From a virus: a stretch of DNA of 41,305 nt. Of the stretch, positions 28,011-39,824 are shown piece after piece. The translations under genes were made by a program, and so were the position numbers. The notes under the pieces were generated by a model that was not told the origin of the DNA, did not search any database, and saw only the letters and a list, made by a program, of their open reading frames with translations. How positions within the stretch are numbered: the stretch's first letter is position 1; every line of letters starts with the position of its first letter. The stretch is taken from positions 1-41,305 of the IMG/VR virus record IMGVR_UViG_3300020197_000054; one strand, written 5' to 3'.

Positions 28011-29441
28011 TTATGACGTTATAATTGAACAACAACCACAACCGTAAATTTTTAAGTTTGATAAATTATATGTTTCATCACTTGTACCAACATAACAATT
28101 AACAAATTCATTTCTATTTACACTTGTTATTGTTCTAATTTTAAAATCACTTGTGTTATCTATAGTAATTGAATCCCACACTTCATTTAATGAAGTTAAC
28201 CAAACATTTTCCGATTGACAACCTGCAACTGTATTAATAATACTATCATCGTTTGTTGAAGATGAGGACGGTGGAATTATATTGATACCATCAATAGTTA
28301 ATGAGGTCTTGGTATTAAAAGTGGCGGAATCTTCATTAGGTGAAGATTTAGATAAGTTTAAATGACTCAATTTAAAGTTAATACTTGTACCATCAGGTAA
28401 ATCAGGTGTTATTGATAATGTTGTCGTGTACTCTTTAGTTAATAATGTACTATTTGCTTGTAGTGTTTTAGGTAGGGTAACTAATTTAACGTTATAAGTG
28501 GTTGGAGGTGATGGAGGATTTAACGTTATATTATTACTAACAGTAAATCCTTCAGAATCACTAACAACAACATTGTAGGAACCTGAACATAAATTACTGA
28601 ACATTGGTATATTTCTATATGTCAAACCACCATTAATCGAATATGAATATGGAGGGTAACCACCACTTGATTTAATTGTTAAACCACCATCACATCCACA
28701 TATTGTTTGGTTTTTAGTAATTAAAACATTCATAGGTTGGACCGAATCTTCTGATTCTGCCGAGAATCTACCATTTGGAATCCTTACTATTTGATTACAG
28801 TTACCTTCATAAACTATTACAGTACCTGTAGCGCCAATAATAAACCAACTACCATAAATTGGTGGGTAAGTAGGATTTGAATTAAATATTGTATAAGTTG
28901 TTGGAGTTGAAGCCGATAACTTCCATTGTAAAAGAGTTGAGTCCCAATATATTACTTGTGTTGAGTCATTAGAAATCCAAGAAGGTTTAGAATTAAATAA
29001 ACCGTTAGGTGAAAAATTAGTTTGAGTTTCTACATAAGAACCTTGTTTAAGTATATTTGTTGTCATACAAAGTTGATACTCAATATAAGGAGTTGTAGGT
29101 GTTGGGGTCGGTGTGGGGGAAGGTGTTGGTGTTGAACCTGTTAAAATACATTTTGTATTTGCGGTAAAATCGCCATAAGAATCAATAACTGTTGCTTCAT
29201 AAACACCTGCAGTTAAATTGTATATAACGGGTGAAATGTTACCGTTATTCCAGCTTATATAATATGGAGGAGTTCCTCCCGTTATTGTTAAATAAATCGA
29301 ACCATCGGATGATGATGGAGAAGGATGAGTAAGATTACACTCAACACCCATAGGGAATAAAGTGATTGGTTCACATTCATTTGTGAACTCAGGTATTATT
29401 GGTTTAGGTGTAGGAGTTGGTCCTAAAAAAGGATAAGTCAT
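28011..29441 (-). CDS. SprB-repeat tail protein with Thr/Pro linker
   Basis: 476 aa. Residues ~20-98 contain one SprB-like repeat (SDGSIYLTITGGTPPYYISW, then YEATVIDSYGDFTANTKC). A Thr/Pro/Ser linker follows (~100-116), then an uncharacterised domain. A second SprB-like repeat lies at ~235-310 (CDGGLTIKSSGGYPPYSYSI, SGSYNVVVSDSEG), and the C-terminal beta domain ends in a Cys-rich tail, GCGCCSIITS. No signal peptide is present, as expected for a virion protein. It lies between the glycosyltransferase-like gene and the 842-aa fibre gene and shares linker and repeat type with the 975-aa protein of the opposite operon. This suggests exchange of modules between fibre genes. A host-surface contact role is inferred. 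Confidence 0.72.
   Translation of the reverse strand: MTYPFLGPTPTPKPIIPEFTNECEPITLFPMGVECNLTHPSPSSSDGSIYLTITGGTPPYYISWNNGNISPVIYNLTAGVYEATVIDSYGDFTANTKCILTGSTPTPSPTPTPTPTTPYIEYQLCMTTNILKQGSYVETQTNFSPNGLFNSKPSWISNDSTQVIYWDSTLLQWKLSASTPTTYTIFNSNPTYPPIYGSWFIIGATGTVIVYEGNCNQIVRIPNGRFSAESEDSVQPMNVLITKNQTICGCDGGLTIKSSGGYPPYSYSINGGLTYRNIPMFSNLCSGSYNVVVSDSEGFTVSNNITLNPPSPPTTYNVKLVTLPKTLQANSTLLTKEYTTTLSITPDLPDGTSINFKLSHLNLSKSSPNEDSATFNTKTSLTIDGINIIPPSSSSTNDDSIINTVAGCQSENVWLTSLNEVWDSITIDNTSDFKIRTITSVNRNEFVNCYVGTSDETYNLSNLKIYGCGCCSIITS
29092..29140 (-). repeat. Thr-Pro linker tract in the 476-aa protein
   Basis: On the minus strand this encodes STPTPSPTPTPTPTTP, the linker between the first SprB-like repeat and the following domain. 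Confidence 0.8.
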
Positions 29442-31060: not shown

Positions 31061-32710
31061 CTAATTATATGATAAACAAGTTTCACAATCAGTATATAAT
31101 GTTGGAGTCACAACACTTGAAAAATAGTTACCTGTGTAGTTTATAATATTTGAACCTGGTGGAAGTGAAGGATAGTTCGGGTAAACCCCATAAAAAGTCC
31201 AACAGTTACCATCATTACCATAGAACGTTTTAGATGAATCTAATGAAGGTCCTGGAAAATTTTGAATTAAGTATTGATTTATTGTTTTTTTTGTATTTTT
31301 ACCAAGTTCTTTAGAGGATGAAAACTCAACTGTAGTTTTTTTACAATTAAGGTAAACGTAAAATTGTTGAGGTAATGAAGGAGTTGGTGTCAAAGTAGGA
31401 GTTGGTGTTAAAGTAGGAGTTGGTGTCATACTAGGTGTTGGACTCGGTTCAGGATAACATTCAACACACTGACCTAAATTGAAGTAACCCACAGGACCTT
31501 CAGTTAAAATAATTTCAGTCACACCAATACTTTCAGGATTAACACCTACATATGAAATACATTTAGAAACACCATCGACAGTTGCTTTGAATATCATATA
31601 TTCCTCTAAAGTATCACCTGATGGTGTAGGTACTGACATAGTGGTGTAATACATCATACCATTAATACAATCTTGGAATTGTTTACTAACAGGACAAGAA
31701 AGGTCACCCTCAATTGTTGTGAAAAAAACATCACCTGTTATGTTACAAGGTCTATTTATTATTCTTGTTGGTGTTGGAGTGGGTGTTGGTGTTGGTGTTG
31801 AGGTTGGAGTAATGCCAACAATAACCGCATCTACATCTATGTTAGCACATGTTAAGTTAGTTGCGGTAGGGGTAGGGGTAGGTGTTAAAGTTGACGTTGG
31901 AGTTGGAGTAGGACTAATAGAAACATCACAATCAAAAATTGCGGTAAAATCAAAAACCTCACAATAAGTTGTTGTTGTAGTAGTTGGAGGGCAAACACCT
32001 GAAGAGAAAAATTCTTCACATAAATCAGGACATTCTGAAAAACAAGGTGACTTACCTGATAGGAGACACATACCACCTAAAGATGTTGATAAACACCATT
32101 GTTTGTTACCTATTGAATAGTAAATATAATAGTTGTTTGAACTTCCCGTCCAATATAGTTGTGAATTATAAGTACCCGCACTGTAGTAAGTACTGTCAAA
32201 AATTGTATCGGTTCCACTTATACAATATATTTCCTCACACACAGGAGGGACTGAACAAGGGAATGAAGTAATACAAGAGTTACAGTCAAGATATGAAGTA
32301 CCCAACCTAAAATTATCTGAGGAAAAAATTGTGTAATAAGGTAAAGCTGATGTATAACCTGAATTAACAATTCGATAACAACCATTTAATTCATTGTTAG
32401 GGTTTGAAGATGATATTATATCTGTAAAATAAAGAGTATCGCCTAACCCAAAATTTACTGAATCCCTTCGAGAAATTGCAATGGCGAATGTTTCGCCACT
32501 ACAACAACCCGAAAATTCTAAAACAGGAATTTCTTTTTCTATTAAGGTTACTACAATATCTACTGATGGTGATGTTATAGTTCCCGCCGCGTTAATGTAA
32601 TAATATAATGAAGGTTCTAGGTCAAAAACTTTAACCGAAGATAAAATATCTGTGAATGTAAAACCAACATAAGTTGATGGTCCCGTATTTTGAATTTGAT
32701 ATATCGGCAT
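31061..32710 (-). CDS. Cys- and Thr/Pro-rich tail/adhesin protein
   Basis: 549 aa. The N-terminal ~170 residues are a beta domain (VGFTFTDILSSVKVFDLEPS) with a CCSGE turn. A segment with many cysteines follows (~145-245), including NKQWCLSTSLGGMCLLSGKS. Two short related modules (CEVFDFTAIFDCDVSISPT and CANIDVDAVIVGITPT) are then joined by Thr/Pro linkers at ~263-281 and ~300-315. A globular part with DGVSKCISYVGVNPES comes next, a third linker (~420-444), and a C-terminal Cys-bearing domain. No signal peptide. It starts directly after the stop of the 72-aa gene. Beaded small domains on stiff Thr/Pro rods suggest an extended fibre; the target is unknown. Confidence 0.68.
   Translation of the reverse strand: MPIYQIQNTGPSTYVGFTFTDILSSVKVFDLEPSLYYYINAAGTITSPSVDIVVTLIEKEIPVLEFSGCCSGETFAIAISRRDSVNFGLGDTLYFTDIISSSNPNNELNGCYRIVNSGYTSALPYYTIFSSDNFRLGTSYLDCNSCITSFPCSVPPVCEEIYCISGTDTIFDSTYYSAGTYNSQLYWTGSSNNYYIYYSIGNKQWCLSTSLGGMCLLSGKSPCFSECPDLCEEFFSSGVCPPTTTTTTYCEVFDFTAIFDCDVSISPTPTPTSTLTPTPTPTATNLTCANIDVDAVIVGITPTSTPTPTPTPTPTRIINRPCNITGDVFFTTIEGDLSCPVSKQFQDCINGMMYYTTMSVPTPSGDTLEEYMIFKATVDGVSKCISYVGVNPESIGVTEIILTEGPVGYFNLGQCVECYPEPSPTPSMTPTPTLTPTPTLTPTPSLPQQFYVYLNCKKTTVEFSSSKELGKNTKKTINQYLIQNFPGPSLDSSKTFYGNDGNCWTFYGVYPNYPSLPPGSNIINYTGNYFSSVVTPTLYTDCETCLSYN
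31378..31450 (-). repeat. Thr-Pro linker tract 3 of the 549-aa protein
   Basis: Minus-strand codons encode PSPTPSMTPTPTLTPTPTLT-like repeats. On the DNA an 18-bp unit (AAAGTAGGAGTTGGTGTY, with Y varying) is nearly repeated, a sign of local duplication. Confidence 0.75.
31766..31920 (-). repeat. Thr-Pro linker tracts 1 and 2 of the 549-aa protein
   Basis: Two tracts (31866-31920 and 31766-31812) encode SPTPTPTSTLTPTPTPTAT and TPTSTPTPTPTPTPTR. They flank the second of the two short related modules of the 549-aa protein. Confidence 0.78.
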
Positions 32711-35717: not shown

Positions 35718-35740
35718 AATGTGTTTTTTTTTTATTGATA

Positions 35741-35747
35741 TATTTAT
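35741..35747 (+). promoter_or_regulatory. TATTTAT box before the 105-aa gene
   Basis: GATATATTTATTAA lies 19 bases before the ATG at 35767, after a poly-T stretch in the gap 35718-35766. Confidence 0.35.
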
Positions 35748-35766
35748 TAATAAAAATATAAAAATT

Positions 35767-36084
35767 ATGAAAAGAATTATAAGATTAACTGAATCAGACC
35801 TTGCAAGAATTGTAAAGAGAGTAATTATGGAACAAGACACAACCGTTTATATGATTGATGGTCTATCTTGGACTCACATTGGTACAGATACGATTGGTCC
35901 AGAATATAATTACAATGGAAAATTTGCCGACGTTCAAATGAAAAACGTACCTAAACAAGGTGAAAAAGCATTATCTGATAAAACTTGGACTGTTGGGTGT
36001 AACGGGAGTGTAGTACCTGCGCCGACATCAGGGAAAGATAAATTACAAAAAATAGCATTAAAAAGCCTTTCTTGTAAATCATAA
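35767..36084 (+). CDS. 105-aa protein with a basic RLTESDLARIVKRV leader
   Basis: Start at the ATG at 35767 rather than the upstream 35719, which would add a poly-Phe/Ile/Lys extension translated from the promoter-like gap. The N-terminus is MKRIIRLTESDLARIVKRVI, a short amphipathic basic helix ending in MEQ, followed by a separate small domain (TVYMIDGLSWTHIGTDTIGP) with two cysteines near the end. From memory, leaders of the form 'RLTESDL-x-RIVKRV' recur in unrelated proteins of uncultured marine phages, which would suggest a targeting or packaging tag. That recurrence could not be tested here. No catalytic motif seen. Confidence 0.65.
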   Translation: MKRIIRLTESDLARIVKRVIMEQDTTVYMIDGLSWTHIGTDTIGPEYNYNGKFADVQMKNVPKQGEKALSDKTWTVGCNGSVVPAPTSGKDKLQKIALKSLSCKS

Positions 36085-36089
36085 AGGTT

Positions 36090-36530
36090 CTATTCACAAT
36101 TTAGAATCTTCATATTTTTTGAAAAATATCCAAAAGTTAATAACTCATCTTTATCATAATAAAAATAGTTTATCTTTGTTGGTGAATTTTCATTTAAGTA
36201 AATTTTGTATTCTGCTGAAGATTGTGTTTCTGTTTTTTTGTCTACATCAAAAACAATAAAATCATAATTAATTTCTTTTTTTATTATATTATATTTAAAC
36301 ACGCTTCTATTATAATATATTGTTATAGTGTTAAGATTTAAATCTAAATCATAAAGAGTATAGTAGTCAATTTCAGAATAAAAAATAACTGAACTGTCCT
36401 CAATAGGATTGACGGTATCAAAAAATTTGGGTGACTGATAAAAAGTTACACTATCAATAGAAAATAAAATTCTACTCTGAGATAAAAACTCATTACTTAA
36501 AATGATAAAAATCAAAAATAAATTTTTCAT
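36090..36530 (-). CDS. Secreted protein, unknown
   Basis: 146 aa. The N-terminus MKNLFLIFIILSNEFLSQS is a good signal peptide with likely cleavage near residue 19; there is no lipobox Cys, so export to the periplasm or outside is expected. The mature part is beta-rich and very rich in Tyr, Phe and Asp (FYSEIDYYTLYDLDLNLNT). It is alone on the minus strand between two plus-strand units. Its upstream region holds TATATTTG, a match to the Bacteroidota -7 consensus. It may act as a cargo gene changing the host envelope, or be a stray host-derived gene. No family recognised. Confidence 0.6.
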   Translation of the reverse strand: MKNLFLIFIILSNEFLSQSRILFSIDSVTFYQSPKFFDTVNPIEDSSVIFYSEIDYYTLYDLDLNLNTITIYYNRSVFKYNIIKKEINYDFIVFDVDKKTETQSSAEYKIYLNENSPTKINYFYYDKDELLTFGYFSKNMKILNCE

Positions 36531-36642: not shown

Positions 36643-37422
36643 ATGATAAAAAAGTTAGTACACTTTTCTGATTTACACATAAGGTTGTTTAAAGACCACG
36701 AACTTTACCGAAGTATCTTAAACAATATGTTTAATCAGTTTAAAGAAATTGCCCCTGATAGAATAGTTTTTACTGGTGATTTAGTCCATTCTAAAAATCA
36801 AATGACTCCTGAACTTATTGAGTTTGTTGCTTGGACATTAACTGAGTGCTCAAAAATTGCTAAAACAGTTCTTATTATTGGTAATCATGATTTCCTTGAA
36901 AATAATATGTCAAGATTGGATGCTTTAACACCAATAATTGATTCATTACAAGATGATAATATAGTTTATTTAAAAAACAGGGGAGTATATGAAGACCAAA
37001 ATATTGATTGGGTTGTTTACTCATTAATGGACCACAACATCCCACCTGATATTGAAAAATCAGATAGGGTTAAAATAGGGTTATTCCATGGACCTGTACA
37101 AGGATTGACAACTGATATAGGTTATAAATTTGATACGGGATTTGAGAGTGACAAGTTTGTGGGATGTGATTTGGTTCTTTGTGGTGACATTCATAAAAGA
37201 CAAGTTTTTAATATCCCTGAAGGTAAGAAAGCTTATATGGTTGGTTCGACAATTCAACAAAACTACGGAGAGACATTAAAAAAACATGGATATGGAATCT
37301 ATGACGTATCTAAAGACAAATACGAGTTTGTTGACTTGGAAAACCCAAAACCATTTCTGGCATTTAAAATAAAGTCATTTGACGACATAATAAACGGAAC
37401 TGAAAAACTTGCGAACGCATAA
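36643..37422 (+). CDS. SbcD/Mre11-like nuclease, T4 gp47-like
   Basis: 259 aa from the ATG at 36643 (a TTG at 36637 is disfavoured). All metallophosphoesterase motifs are present in order: HFSDLHIR, FTGDLVHS, IIGNHDFLEN, LFHGPVQG and LCGDIHKRQ. With its ATPase partner (SbcC/Rad50, gp46), such an enzyme resects DNA ends for recombination-dependent replication. It is shorter than T4 gp47 (339 aa), lacking part of the C-terminal capping domain. The usual partner gene does not follow directly; instead a cysteine synthase gene starts on its stop codon. The leader contains CTATATTTTTG, a variant of the local box. Confidence 0.88.
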   Translation: MIKKLVHFSDLHIRLFKDHELYRSILNNMFNQFKEIAPDRIVFTGDLVHSKNQMTPELIEFVAWTLTECSKIAKTVLIIGNHDFLENNMSRLDALTPIIDSLQDDNIVYLKNRGVYEDQNIDWVVYSLMDHNIPPDIEKSDRVKIGLFHGPVQGLTTDIGYKFDTGFESDKFVGCDLVLCGDIHKRQVFNIPEGKKAYMVGSTIQQNYGETLKKHGYGIYDVSKDKYEFVDLENPKPFLAFKIKSFDDIINGTEKLANA

Positions 37423-38303
37423 TGAGAACTGAGTTAACCATTGGACAAACATCACTGTTACCATTAAACATAGACGGGTTTACCATATGGGGTAAGGCTG
37501 AGTTTATGAACCCATCAGGTTCTGTTAAAGATAGACCAATTTACAACATACTTAAAAGTGGTTTTGATGATGGTTTATTAAATAAGGGCGATACTGTTGT
37601 TGAGGCAACTAGTGGTAACGCAGGTATTTCATTTGCTATGTTATGTGTTCAGATGGGTCTTAAATGTGTAATTGTGATGCCATCTAACATGAGTGATGAA
37701 CGTAAAAAGATTTTAAAGTTTTACGGAGCAGAACTTATTGAAGTTGGACCTGGCGACTTTGATGGAGCGATAAAATTAAGAGATGAGTTAGCAATCAAGA
37801 ATGGATGGTTTAATGGAAACCAATTCGATAACCCTAAAAATTTGGAATCTCACTACATGGGGACGGGTGTTGAATTGATGTATCAATGTAGGTGTAATGG
37901 TATTAACCCATCAGCATTCATTGCTGGTACTGGTACAGGTGGAACTCTTATGGGTGCTGGTAGAATGTTGTCAGAACAATTTTTTGACTTACAAATAGTT
38001 GCGGTGGAGCCAGCAGAATCACCTGTAATGAGCGGTGGAGAACCAAGGTTACACGGAATTCAAGGTATCGGAGACGGGTCAAAGTTTATGGTTGATTTAA
38101 ATTTTGTTGACAAGATTATTACGGTGTCAACTCAAGAAGCTACTAATATGGCTTTACGATTAGCCAAAGAGTTTGGGATTTTTGTCGGGATTAGTGCAGG
38201 GGCAAATGTATCAGGTTCTTTAAAGTATTGTCAAGAAACTGGTAGAGATAATGTAATTACAATTCTTTGTGACAGAGGTGAACGATATCTAACTTGTATG
38301 TAA
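37422..38303 (+). CDS. Cysteine synthase (O-acetylserine sulfhydrylase), CysK/CysM family
   Basis: 293 aa, PLP-dependent fold type II. Key sites are intact: NPSGSVKDRP with the PLP-binding lysine at about residue 36, EATSGNAGIS at 61-70 for the substrate carboxylate, GTGTGGTL at 169-176 as the phosphate cradle, HGIQGIGDG near 211, and the C-terminal GISAGAN and CDRGERYLT. Length equals bacterial CysK/CysM (about 300 aa), so it looks functional. It would make cysteine from O-acetylserine (or phosphoserine) and sulfide or thiosulfate. The start shares a base with the stop of the gp47-like gene (TAATG). In a phage this would be an auxiliary metabolic gene. Related PLP enzymes such as threonine synthase are less likely given the NPSGSVKDR and GIQGIG motifs. 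Confidence 0.88.
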   Translation: MRTELTIGQTSLLPLNIDGFTIWGKAEFMNPSGSVKDRPIYNILKSGFDDGLLNKGDTVVEATSGNAGISFAMLCVQMGLKCVIVMPSNMSDERKKILKFYGAELIEVGPGDFDGAIKLRDELAIKNGWFNGNQFDNPKNLESHYMGTGVELMYQCRCNGINPSAFIAGTGTGGTLMGAGRMLSEQFFDLQIVAVEPAESPVMSGGEPRLHGIQGIGDGSKFMVDLNFVDKIITVSTQEATNMALRLAKEFGIFVGISAGANVSGSLKYCQETGRDNVITILCDRGERYLTCM

Positions 38304-39095: not shown

Positions 39096-39824
39096 ATGAA
39101 AAAATGTAAAAAATGTAATATAATTAAAGATTTATTTGAATTTGGTATTAATAAAAATAAATCAGACGGTAGGTCAATATATTGTAAGGAATGTGAAAGG
39201 TTAAGAGGTGTTGATTATAGAAATAAACACAGAGATAAAGTTAATCAATCATCTAAAAATTATAGAAAAAATAATCCTGAAAAATATAAAGAAAGTATTA
39301 ATAAATATTTGGAAAAACATCCTGAGATGTTATCTAAAAACAGATTAATTCTTTATCGTAAAAATGAGGAATTTAAGAAAAAAGAAAAAATAAAAAGAAA
39401 GGAATGGTATTTAAAAAATATTGATAGTATTCGTGAAAAAAGTAAAAAATATTATCATGAAAATAAAAAAGTTTTAAGAGAAAAAAATAACGTATATAAA
39501 TCTTTAAAACTAAAAATCGACCCTTTAGAACGCCTCGAAAAGAATCTTAGAGATAGGATTAGAGAATATTTAACAGGGGAAAATAAAAGTAAAAGAACTT
39601 TTGAAATTATAGGTCTTGATAAAGAAAAATTTAAATCCTATATTGAAAGTAAATTTAAAGAAGGAATGTCGTGGGAAAATTATGGGGAGTGGCATTTAGA
39701 CCACATAAAACCATTATACCTTTCTGAAAATGAAGAAGATTTAGTTAAACTAAATCATTACACTAACCTCCAACCATTATGGGCCGAGGATAATATTAAA
39801 AAAAATATAAAATATGACAACTAA
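39096..39824 (+). CDS. HNH homing endonuclease
   Basis: 242 aa. An N-terminal zinc finger is formed by KKCKKCNI and YCKECERLR. The middle ~100 residues are a very Lys/Asn/Tyr-rich helical DNA-binding region. The HNH core lies at the C-terminus: WHLDHIKPLY with the catalytic His, then HYTNLQPLWAEDNIKK with the Asn and final His-equivalent positions. The gene is more AT-rich and uses more AAA/AAT/TAT codons than its neighbours, a usual sign of a mobile free-standing endonuclease. It sits between the coiled-coil and membrane-protein genes and ends overlapping the latter by 11 bases. No intron boundaries are visible, so it is probably a free-standing homing gene. Confidence 0.85.
   Translation: MKKCKKCNIIKDLFEFGINKNKSDGRSIYCKECERLRGVDYRNKHRDKVNQSSKNYRKNNPEKYKESINKYLEKHPEMLSKNRLILYRKNEEFKKKEKIKRKEWYLKNIDSIREKSKKYYHENKKVLREKNNVYKSLKLKIDPLERLEKNLRDRIREYLTGENKSKRTFEIIGLDKEKFKSYIESKFKEGMSWENYGEWHLDHIKPLYLSENEEDLVKLNHYTNLQPLWAEDNIKKNIKYDN

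What the first reader, a model, noticed from the sequence alone, without database searches (positions are those of the whole stretch)
37422..38303. Phage-encoded cysteine synthase
A full-length CysK/CysM-like enzyme with PLP lysine and substrate motifs intact shares its start with the stop of the gp47-like nuclease gene. A complete cysteine-forming enzyme is unusual in a phage. The tail proteins here are notably Cys-rich (for example 31061-32710 and 28011-29441), so extra cysteine supply during late infection is one possible reason; redox control of the class Ia NrdAB is another.
Basis: partly seen in the sequence, partly recalled or inferred. Interest (0 to 1): 0.6.

Follow-up and report, generated by a model that had tools for sequence, protein, structure and literature searches.

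The report
Phage CysK-like enzyme with unusual aspartate
A phage that probably infects Bacteroidota carries an intact relative of cysteine synthase whose active site has an aspartate that normal cysteine synthases lack but a known serine/cysteine-interconverting enzyme needs, so it may swap serine, cysteine and sulfide without the usual activated serine.

Summary
The ORF is real: 293 aa at 37422-38303, complete and under purifying selection (dN/dS 0.01-0.17). Its PLP and substrate-binding residues are conserved in 57 complete viral homologues. 'Phage-encoded cysteine synthase' is broadly right, and phage cysK genes are already published. (1) It is not a recent host pickup. It belongs to an old, virus-dominated lineage separate from E. 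coli CysK and CysM, found in contigs up to 634 kb, and its position moves between phages. (2) It may not be a canonical O-acetylserine enzyme. In all 57 viral proteins, and in the 634-kb phage, CysK Ala231 is Asp218 (GIG-D-GSKF). A direct alignment shows this is the position of Asp232 in Fusobacterium Fn1055, a cysteine hydroxyl-lyase (Cys + H2O <-> Ser + H2S) for which Asp232 is a key residue. In IMG/VR, the Asp form of this motif gave at least 97 CysK-like proteins and the Ala form 3. I favour serine/cysteine/sulfide exchange that bypasses O-acetylserine (about 0.5), with canonical O-acetylserine sulfhydrylase as the main rival. No activity was tested. The Cys-rich-tail explanation is possible only for the closest relatives. 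Verdict: new variant of a known kind.

The parts
37422..38303 (+). CDS of the CysK-superfamily (fold-type II PLP) enzyme, 293 aa
37527..37529 (+). codon of Lys36, the PLP Schiff-base lysine (CysK Lys41)
   Evidence: invariant in 57 viral proteins; alignment
37608..37619 (+). codons of Thr63-Ser64-Gly65-Asn66, substrate/PLP loop (Fn1055 Thr73, Ser74)
   Evidence: invariant; alignment; Fn1055 residues from PMC12940168
37821..37823 (+). codon of Gln134 (CysK Gln142; Fn1055 Gln147)
   Evidence: invariant
37926..37943 (+). codons of residues 169-174, GTGTGG, PLP phosphate loop
   Evidence: invariant
38073..38075 (+). codon of Asp218 in GIG-D-GSKF; Ala231 in CysK, Asp232 in Fn1055
   Evidence: invariant in 57 viral proteins; PDB 5b53 wild type against 5b55 D232N alignment
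38268..38273 (+). codons of Cys283-Asp284 (CDRG, as in E. coli CysM ICDRGDRYLS)
   Evidence: invariant
36643..37422 (+). SbcD/gp47-like phosphoesterase; stop overlaps the enzyme's start (context, probably one transcript)
   Evidence: PHROG 100 E 7.5e-32; PF00149

Best explanation
It is a working, phage-resident member of the CysK/CysM/CBS PLP enzyme superfamily. SHOWN: complete ORF, conserved PLP and carboxylate-binding residues, CysK-like fold model, purifying selection, a virus-dominated clade, and invariant Asp218 where CysK has Ala231. INFERRED: Asp218 acts like Asp232 of Fn1055 by polarising water or the serine hydroxyl at the aminoacrylate step. The enzyme would then exchange serine and cysteine directly (Ser + HS- <-> Cys + H2O). 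During infection it would most likely make cysteine from host serine and sulfide without O-acetylserine, bypassing host serine acetyltransferase (CysE), which cysteine inhibits. The direction in the cell would depend on sulfide level; at low sulfide the same enzyme would release H2S from cysteine.
For:: PDB 5b53 (Fn1055) reads gisDefip and its D232N mutant 5b55 reads gisNefip in the same alignment, which fixes Asp232 to this motif. Searches put phage Asp218 in that column, where E. coli CysK and Lactococcus phage P087 have Ala. Asp218, Thr63, Ser64 and Gln134 are invariant in 57 viral proteins, and the same four residues occur in the 634-kb phage. (PMC12940168): Fn1055 converts Cys to Ser + H2S; key residues Asp232, Ser74, Thr73, Gln147; in IMG/VR, IQGIG-D-G lies in at least 97 CysK-like proteins and IQGIG-A-G in 3; dN/dS 0.01-0.17; model pLDDT 83; best PDB matches are CysK (Z 33), with Fn1055 at Z 31; none of 14 carrier contigs has a cysE over cut-off.
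Against: No activity data. Asp at this column also occurs in many untested cellular homologues, some closer to ordinary CysK (L099, L105), so it may be compatible with O-acetylserine use. The phage loop differs from Fn1055 (GDGSKF against SDEFIP), with one residue fewer than CysK. Overall sequence and fold rank canonical CysK first. Absence of cysE does not discriminate, because the host can supply O-acetylserine. The role of Asp232 rests on one experimental system. The AlphaFold model has low confidence at 29-32, 206-208 and the C-terminus.
Confidence: 0.5

Rival explanations
1. Canonical O-acetylserine sulfhydrylase: O-acetylserine from the host plus sulfide gives cysteine, an ordinary auxiliary metabolic gene supplying cysteine.
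For: Best family and structure matches are cysteine synthases; PLP and carboxylate residues conserved; published phage cysK genes are annotated this way.
Against: Asp218 replaces Ala231 in every viral member; the GFIP part of the CysK loop is lost (GDG-SKF) and the CysK Met119-Lys120 positions are invariant Phe113-Asp114; all scores stay below the curated cysK and cysM cut-offs.
Confidence: 0.3
2. Cysteine breakdown for sulfide: the enzyme mainly runs Cys + H2O to Ser + H2S in infected cells, mobilising sulfur or changing redox state.
For: Fn1055 is reported in this direction; sulfide from cysteine degradation is reported for a Lactococcus phage-host system (Kieft et al. 2021, cited in PMC12713726).
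Against: The direction cannot be read from sequence; the Lactococcus phage P087 enzyme is of the Ala type.
Confidence: 0.1
3. A different beta-replacement, with another nucleophile or serine derivative, making a non-standard amino acid.
For: Closest sister enzymes in Bacteroidia sit in a molybdenum-hydroxylase / 2-oxoacid oxidoreductase / aminotransferase cluster, not with cysteine genes.
Against: Phage neighbourhoods share no partner pathway; the active site otherwise matches the cysteine enzymes.
Confidence: 0.1

Closest known systems
Fn1055 (CysK2) of Fusobacterium nucleatum, cysteine hydroxyl-lyase (PDB 5b53, 5b55, 5z5c)
   Same: Same superfamily; Thr73, Ser74, Gln147 and Asp232 all have counterparts (T63, S64, Q134, D218)
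   Different: Distant in the tree (Bacteroidia Fn1055-like proteins L150, L151, L153, L155, L158 form another clade); loop GDGSKF instead of SDEFIP; no C-terminal extension
CysK, O-acetylserine sulfhydrylase A (S. aureus, E. coli, Salmonella)
   Same: Fold, PLP lysine, TSGN, QF and GTGTGG motifs
   Different: Ala231 is Asp218; GFIP lost; Met119-Lys120 is Phe-Asp; separate clade
CysM, O-acetylserine sulfhydrylase B (E. coli)
   Same: C-terminal CDRG-RYLS motif; similar length
   Different: Lacks the CysM IRRWP loop including Arg210; separate clade
Phage cysK of Lactococcus P087-like phages (Teubervirus)
   Same: Phage-encoded CysK homologue
   Different: About 40% identity, Ala-type active site (GISAGFIP), clusters with cellular CysK rather than with this family

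Membership tests
CysK/CysM/CBS superfamily (fold-type II PLP beta-replacement enzymes) | PLP lysine in NPxGSxKDR, Asn of TSGN, Gly/Thr-rich phosphate loop, fold-type II fold | tested here: met
Canonical O-acetylserine sulfhydrylase (CysK) | score above curated cysK cut-off (351 bits) | tested here: not met
   270.7 bits
Canonical O-acetylserine sulfhydrylase (CysK) | GIGAGF[IV]P loop with Ala231 | tested here: not met
   GIGDG-SKF in 57/57 viral proteins
Canonical O-acetylserine sulfhydrylase (CysK) | cysteine formation from O-acetylserine and sulfide | not testable with these tools
   needs an enzyme assay
CysM (O-acetylserine sulfhydrylase B) | score above curated cysM cut-off (394 bits) and IRRWP loop with Arg210 | tested here: not met
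   224 bits; Gln-Gly-Ile at this place
Fn1055-type cysteine hydroxyl-lyase | active-site Asp at the CysK Ala231 position plus Thr, Ser, Gln partners | tested here: met
Fn1055-type cysteine hydroxyl-lyase | same clade as Fn1055 | tested here: not met
   Bacteroidia Fn1055-like proteins (L150 etc.; L150 matches 5b53 at E 1.5e-119) lie in a separate clade
Fn1055-type cysteine hydroxyl-lyase | Cys + H2O to Ser + H2S activity | not testable with these tools
   needs an enzyme assay
Virus-resident gene, not a host contaminant | recurs in many virus contigs and groups with viruses | tested here: met
   63 loci; clade of 26 virus + 4 cell-labelled rows, support 100/100; a strictly single viral clade is neither shown nor rejected (AU p 0.196)

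The most novel reading that the evidence does not exclude
Most environmental viral 'cysK' genes of this motif class are not O-acetylserine sulfhydrylases but an Asp-type serine/cysteine hydroxyl-exchange lineage kept mainly by large, probably Bacteroidota-infecting phages. It would let them make cysteine, or release sulfide, independently of the host's regulated CysE step, and would mean that viral cysK annotations need revision.
Probability: 0.4. Interest if true: 0.65.

Novelty: new variant of a known kind. Interest (0 to 1): 0.48.

Why it matters
Viral cysK is routinely counted as assimilatory sulfur metabolism. If the Asp218 lineage uses serine directly or releases sulfide, its role in infected cells and in sulfur budgets changes, and the viral solution would sidestep CysE, the control point of host cysteine synthesis. 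One residue and one lineage make this testable with standard complementation strains.

Tried and rejected
Recent host contamination: rejected. Serine acetyltransferase or PAPS reductase carried alongside: none over cut-off in 14 contigs. APS kinase as a general partner: only L058 (1 of 50 contigs over cut-off). Defence-system model for the enzyme: no PADLOC match. Conserved operon with SbcD: order varies and many lineages lack it. Cys-rich proteins as the general reason: flanks of carriers are not Cys-enriched. A short synthetic probe to reveal Fn1055 in the PDB failed; a natural Fn1055-like Bacteroidia protein (L150) worked. The GNAT protein near the gene in L004-L012 was considered as an O-acetylserine source, but GNAT is not the CysE fold and nothing supports it.

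Full report
Observation. The ORF at 37422-38303 is complete, ATG-started and 293 aa long. It hits the cysteine synthase subfamily model TIGR01136 over residues 5-291 (E 1.3e-84), below the curated cut-off, and the same holds for cysK and cysM. PHROGs holds it as a family without function (phrog_11528). The best PDB sequence matches are cysteine synthases. The window is an IMG/VR virus record, a linear 41,305-base fragment, with DnaB, primase, NrdA, NrdB, gp25 and baseplate genes. The enzyme's ATG overlaps the TAA of the SbcD/gp47-like gene by one base.

Relatives. One scan of viral contigs gave 63 loci encoding relatives, 55-100% identical, in contigs up to 298 kb. A 634-kb phage has a 53% homologue. 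Across 57 complete viral proteins including the window, the PLP lysine, TSGN, Gln134, GTGTGG, HGIQGIGDGSKF and CDRG are invariant. Pairwise dN/dS is 0.01-0.17 where dS could be estimated, so the protein is under purifying selection.

Tree. With cellular homologues and E. coli CysK and CysM, the window sits in a clade of 30 rows (26 viral, 4 labelled cellular) with support 100/100, apart from both E. coli enzymes. One of the four, L069 from a 'Nitrosopelagicus' bin, carries neighbours shared with the phages and looks like a mis-binned phage contig. L065, L067 and L068 are marine Bacteroidota genes, beside photolyase genes where checked (L065, L067). A single viral clade excluding them is neither shown nor rejected (AU p 0.196), so the direction of transfer is open. 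Only 4 of 119 class-mate genomes of the Bacteroidota relative L070 (itself one of the four) hold a copy at 50% identity or more. The Lactococcus phage enzymes group with cellular CysK, so phages acquired cysK-like genes more than once.

Genome position. The near-identical L003 keeps the window's order. L004-L010 have the enzyme first and SbcD second, again overlapping. L002 and L011 have it elsewhere. Other lineages place it beside a cyclophilin, the gp23 capsid gene, a polymerase-like gene or an APS kinase. The gene moves while its sequence is conserved. None of 14 carrier contigs had cysE or PAPS reductase over cut-off, so substrates would come from the host.

Active site. Aligning with E. 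coli enzymes shows one active-site change common to the family: CysK Ala231 (GIGAGFIP) is Asp218 (GIGDG-SKF). Fn1055 of Fusobacterium nucleatum turns cysteine and water into serine and H2S, with key residues Asp232, Ser74, Thr73 and Gln147 (PMC12940168). From memory, not held in the library: the original Fn1055 paper calls Asp232 unique among known homologues and reports loss of activity in D232N. With a Bacteroidia Fn1055-like protein as query, the PDB alignments show gisDefip for the wild type 5b53 and gisNefip for 5b55, the D232N entry, which fixes Asp232 to this column. The lower score of 5b55 against queries with Asp here agrees. All four Fn1055 residues have invariant counterparts in the phage family. 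Fn1055-like Bacteroidia proteins form another clade, so this is shared active-site chemistry at most, not membership.

Census. In IMG/VR the Ala form of the motif (IQGIGAG) matched 81 stretches, of which 3 encode CysK-like proteins. Caveats: some contigs may be redundant, the Asp count is a lower bound, CysM-like and GIS-type enzymes are not counted, and cellular loci were selected with an Asp-containing pattern, so no cellular frequency can be drawn from them.

Structure. The AlphaFold model from 18 window and locus proteins has mean pLDDT 83. VIA-align gives S. aureus CysK Z 33, O-ureidoserine synthase 31.9 and Fn1055 31.2. These ranks are close and do not tell substrates apart.

Mechanism. 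Shown: intact enzyme, conserved site, Asp218. Inferred: Asp218 activates the serine hydroxyl or water, making serine/cysteine/sulfide exchange possible without O-acetylserine. That cysteine feedback-inhibits CysE is established knowledge (also stated in PMC8786284, listed). Direction in vivo is unknown. Canonical O-acetylserine use remains the main rival.

Prior art. Phage cysK is known: jumbo phages (PMC13037316), Mariana Trench (PMC8725595), seamounts (PMC11018836) and Lactococcus phages (Kieft et al. 2021, cited in PMC12713726). I found no paper that separates an Asp-type viral lineage, but subscription papers were not searchable.

Noticed in passing
L070, L075-L077, L079, L081-L085, L088 (L076 annotated in detail): In uncultured Bacteroidia the closest sister enzymes sit in a conserved cluster of 2-oxoacid (indolepyruvate-type) oxidoreductase, xanthine-dehydrogenase-type Fe-S, molybdopterin and FAD subunits and an aminotransferase, not a cysteine operon.
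   Followed up: partly
L065:4131-5237, L067:6906-8375: In marine Bacteroidota the gene lies beside a photolyase (PF03441) in two unlike arrangements.
   Followed up: partly
L058:8864-9940: An APS kinase overlaps the enzyme gene, followed by a nucleotidyltransferase-like ORF and a DUF2061 protein; DUF2061-like homologues occur in eight carrier loci.
   Followed up: partly
L013:11502-12524 and homologues, 13 loci in all: Glutamine-synthetase-like gene in the same phages; L013 also carries a sugar nucleotidyltransferase.
   Followed up: no
many marine-type viral loci, about 430 bases upstream of the enzyme (e.g. L013:7549-7974): A cyclophilin-type prolyl isomerase gene (cluster of 29 viral loci) overlaps the start of the enzyme gene in most of them.
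   Followed up: no
window 39096-39824: A Cys/His-containing ORF with an HNH-like C-terminus that interrupts the order kept in relatives; shared only with L003, possibly a mobile endonuclease (no Pfam match).
   Followed up: no
window 36090-36530 (-) and 35719-36084 (+): Two ORFs present only in the window and L003, next to the SbcD gene.
   Followed up: no
window 31061-32710 (-) and homologues in L004-L007, L010, L012, L056, L057: Conserved Cys-rich protein (3.5-5.3% Cys) without a family match.
   Followed up: partly
L227, L242, L254: More distant viral Asp-type variants (42-44% identity) with GIGDG[GK]DYL instead of GIGDGSKF.
   Followed up: no
L069 (CALBOT010000027.1): Contig binned as Candidatus Nitrosopelagicus carries phage-type neighbours and looks mis-binned.
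   Followed up: partly
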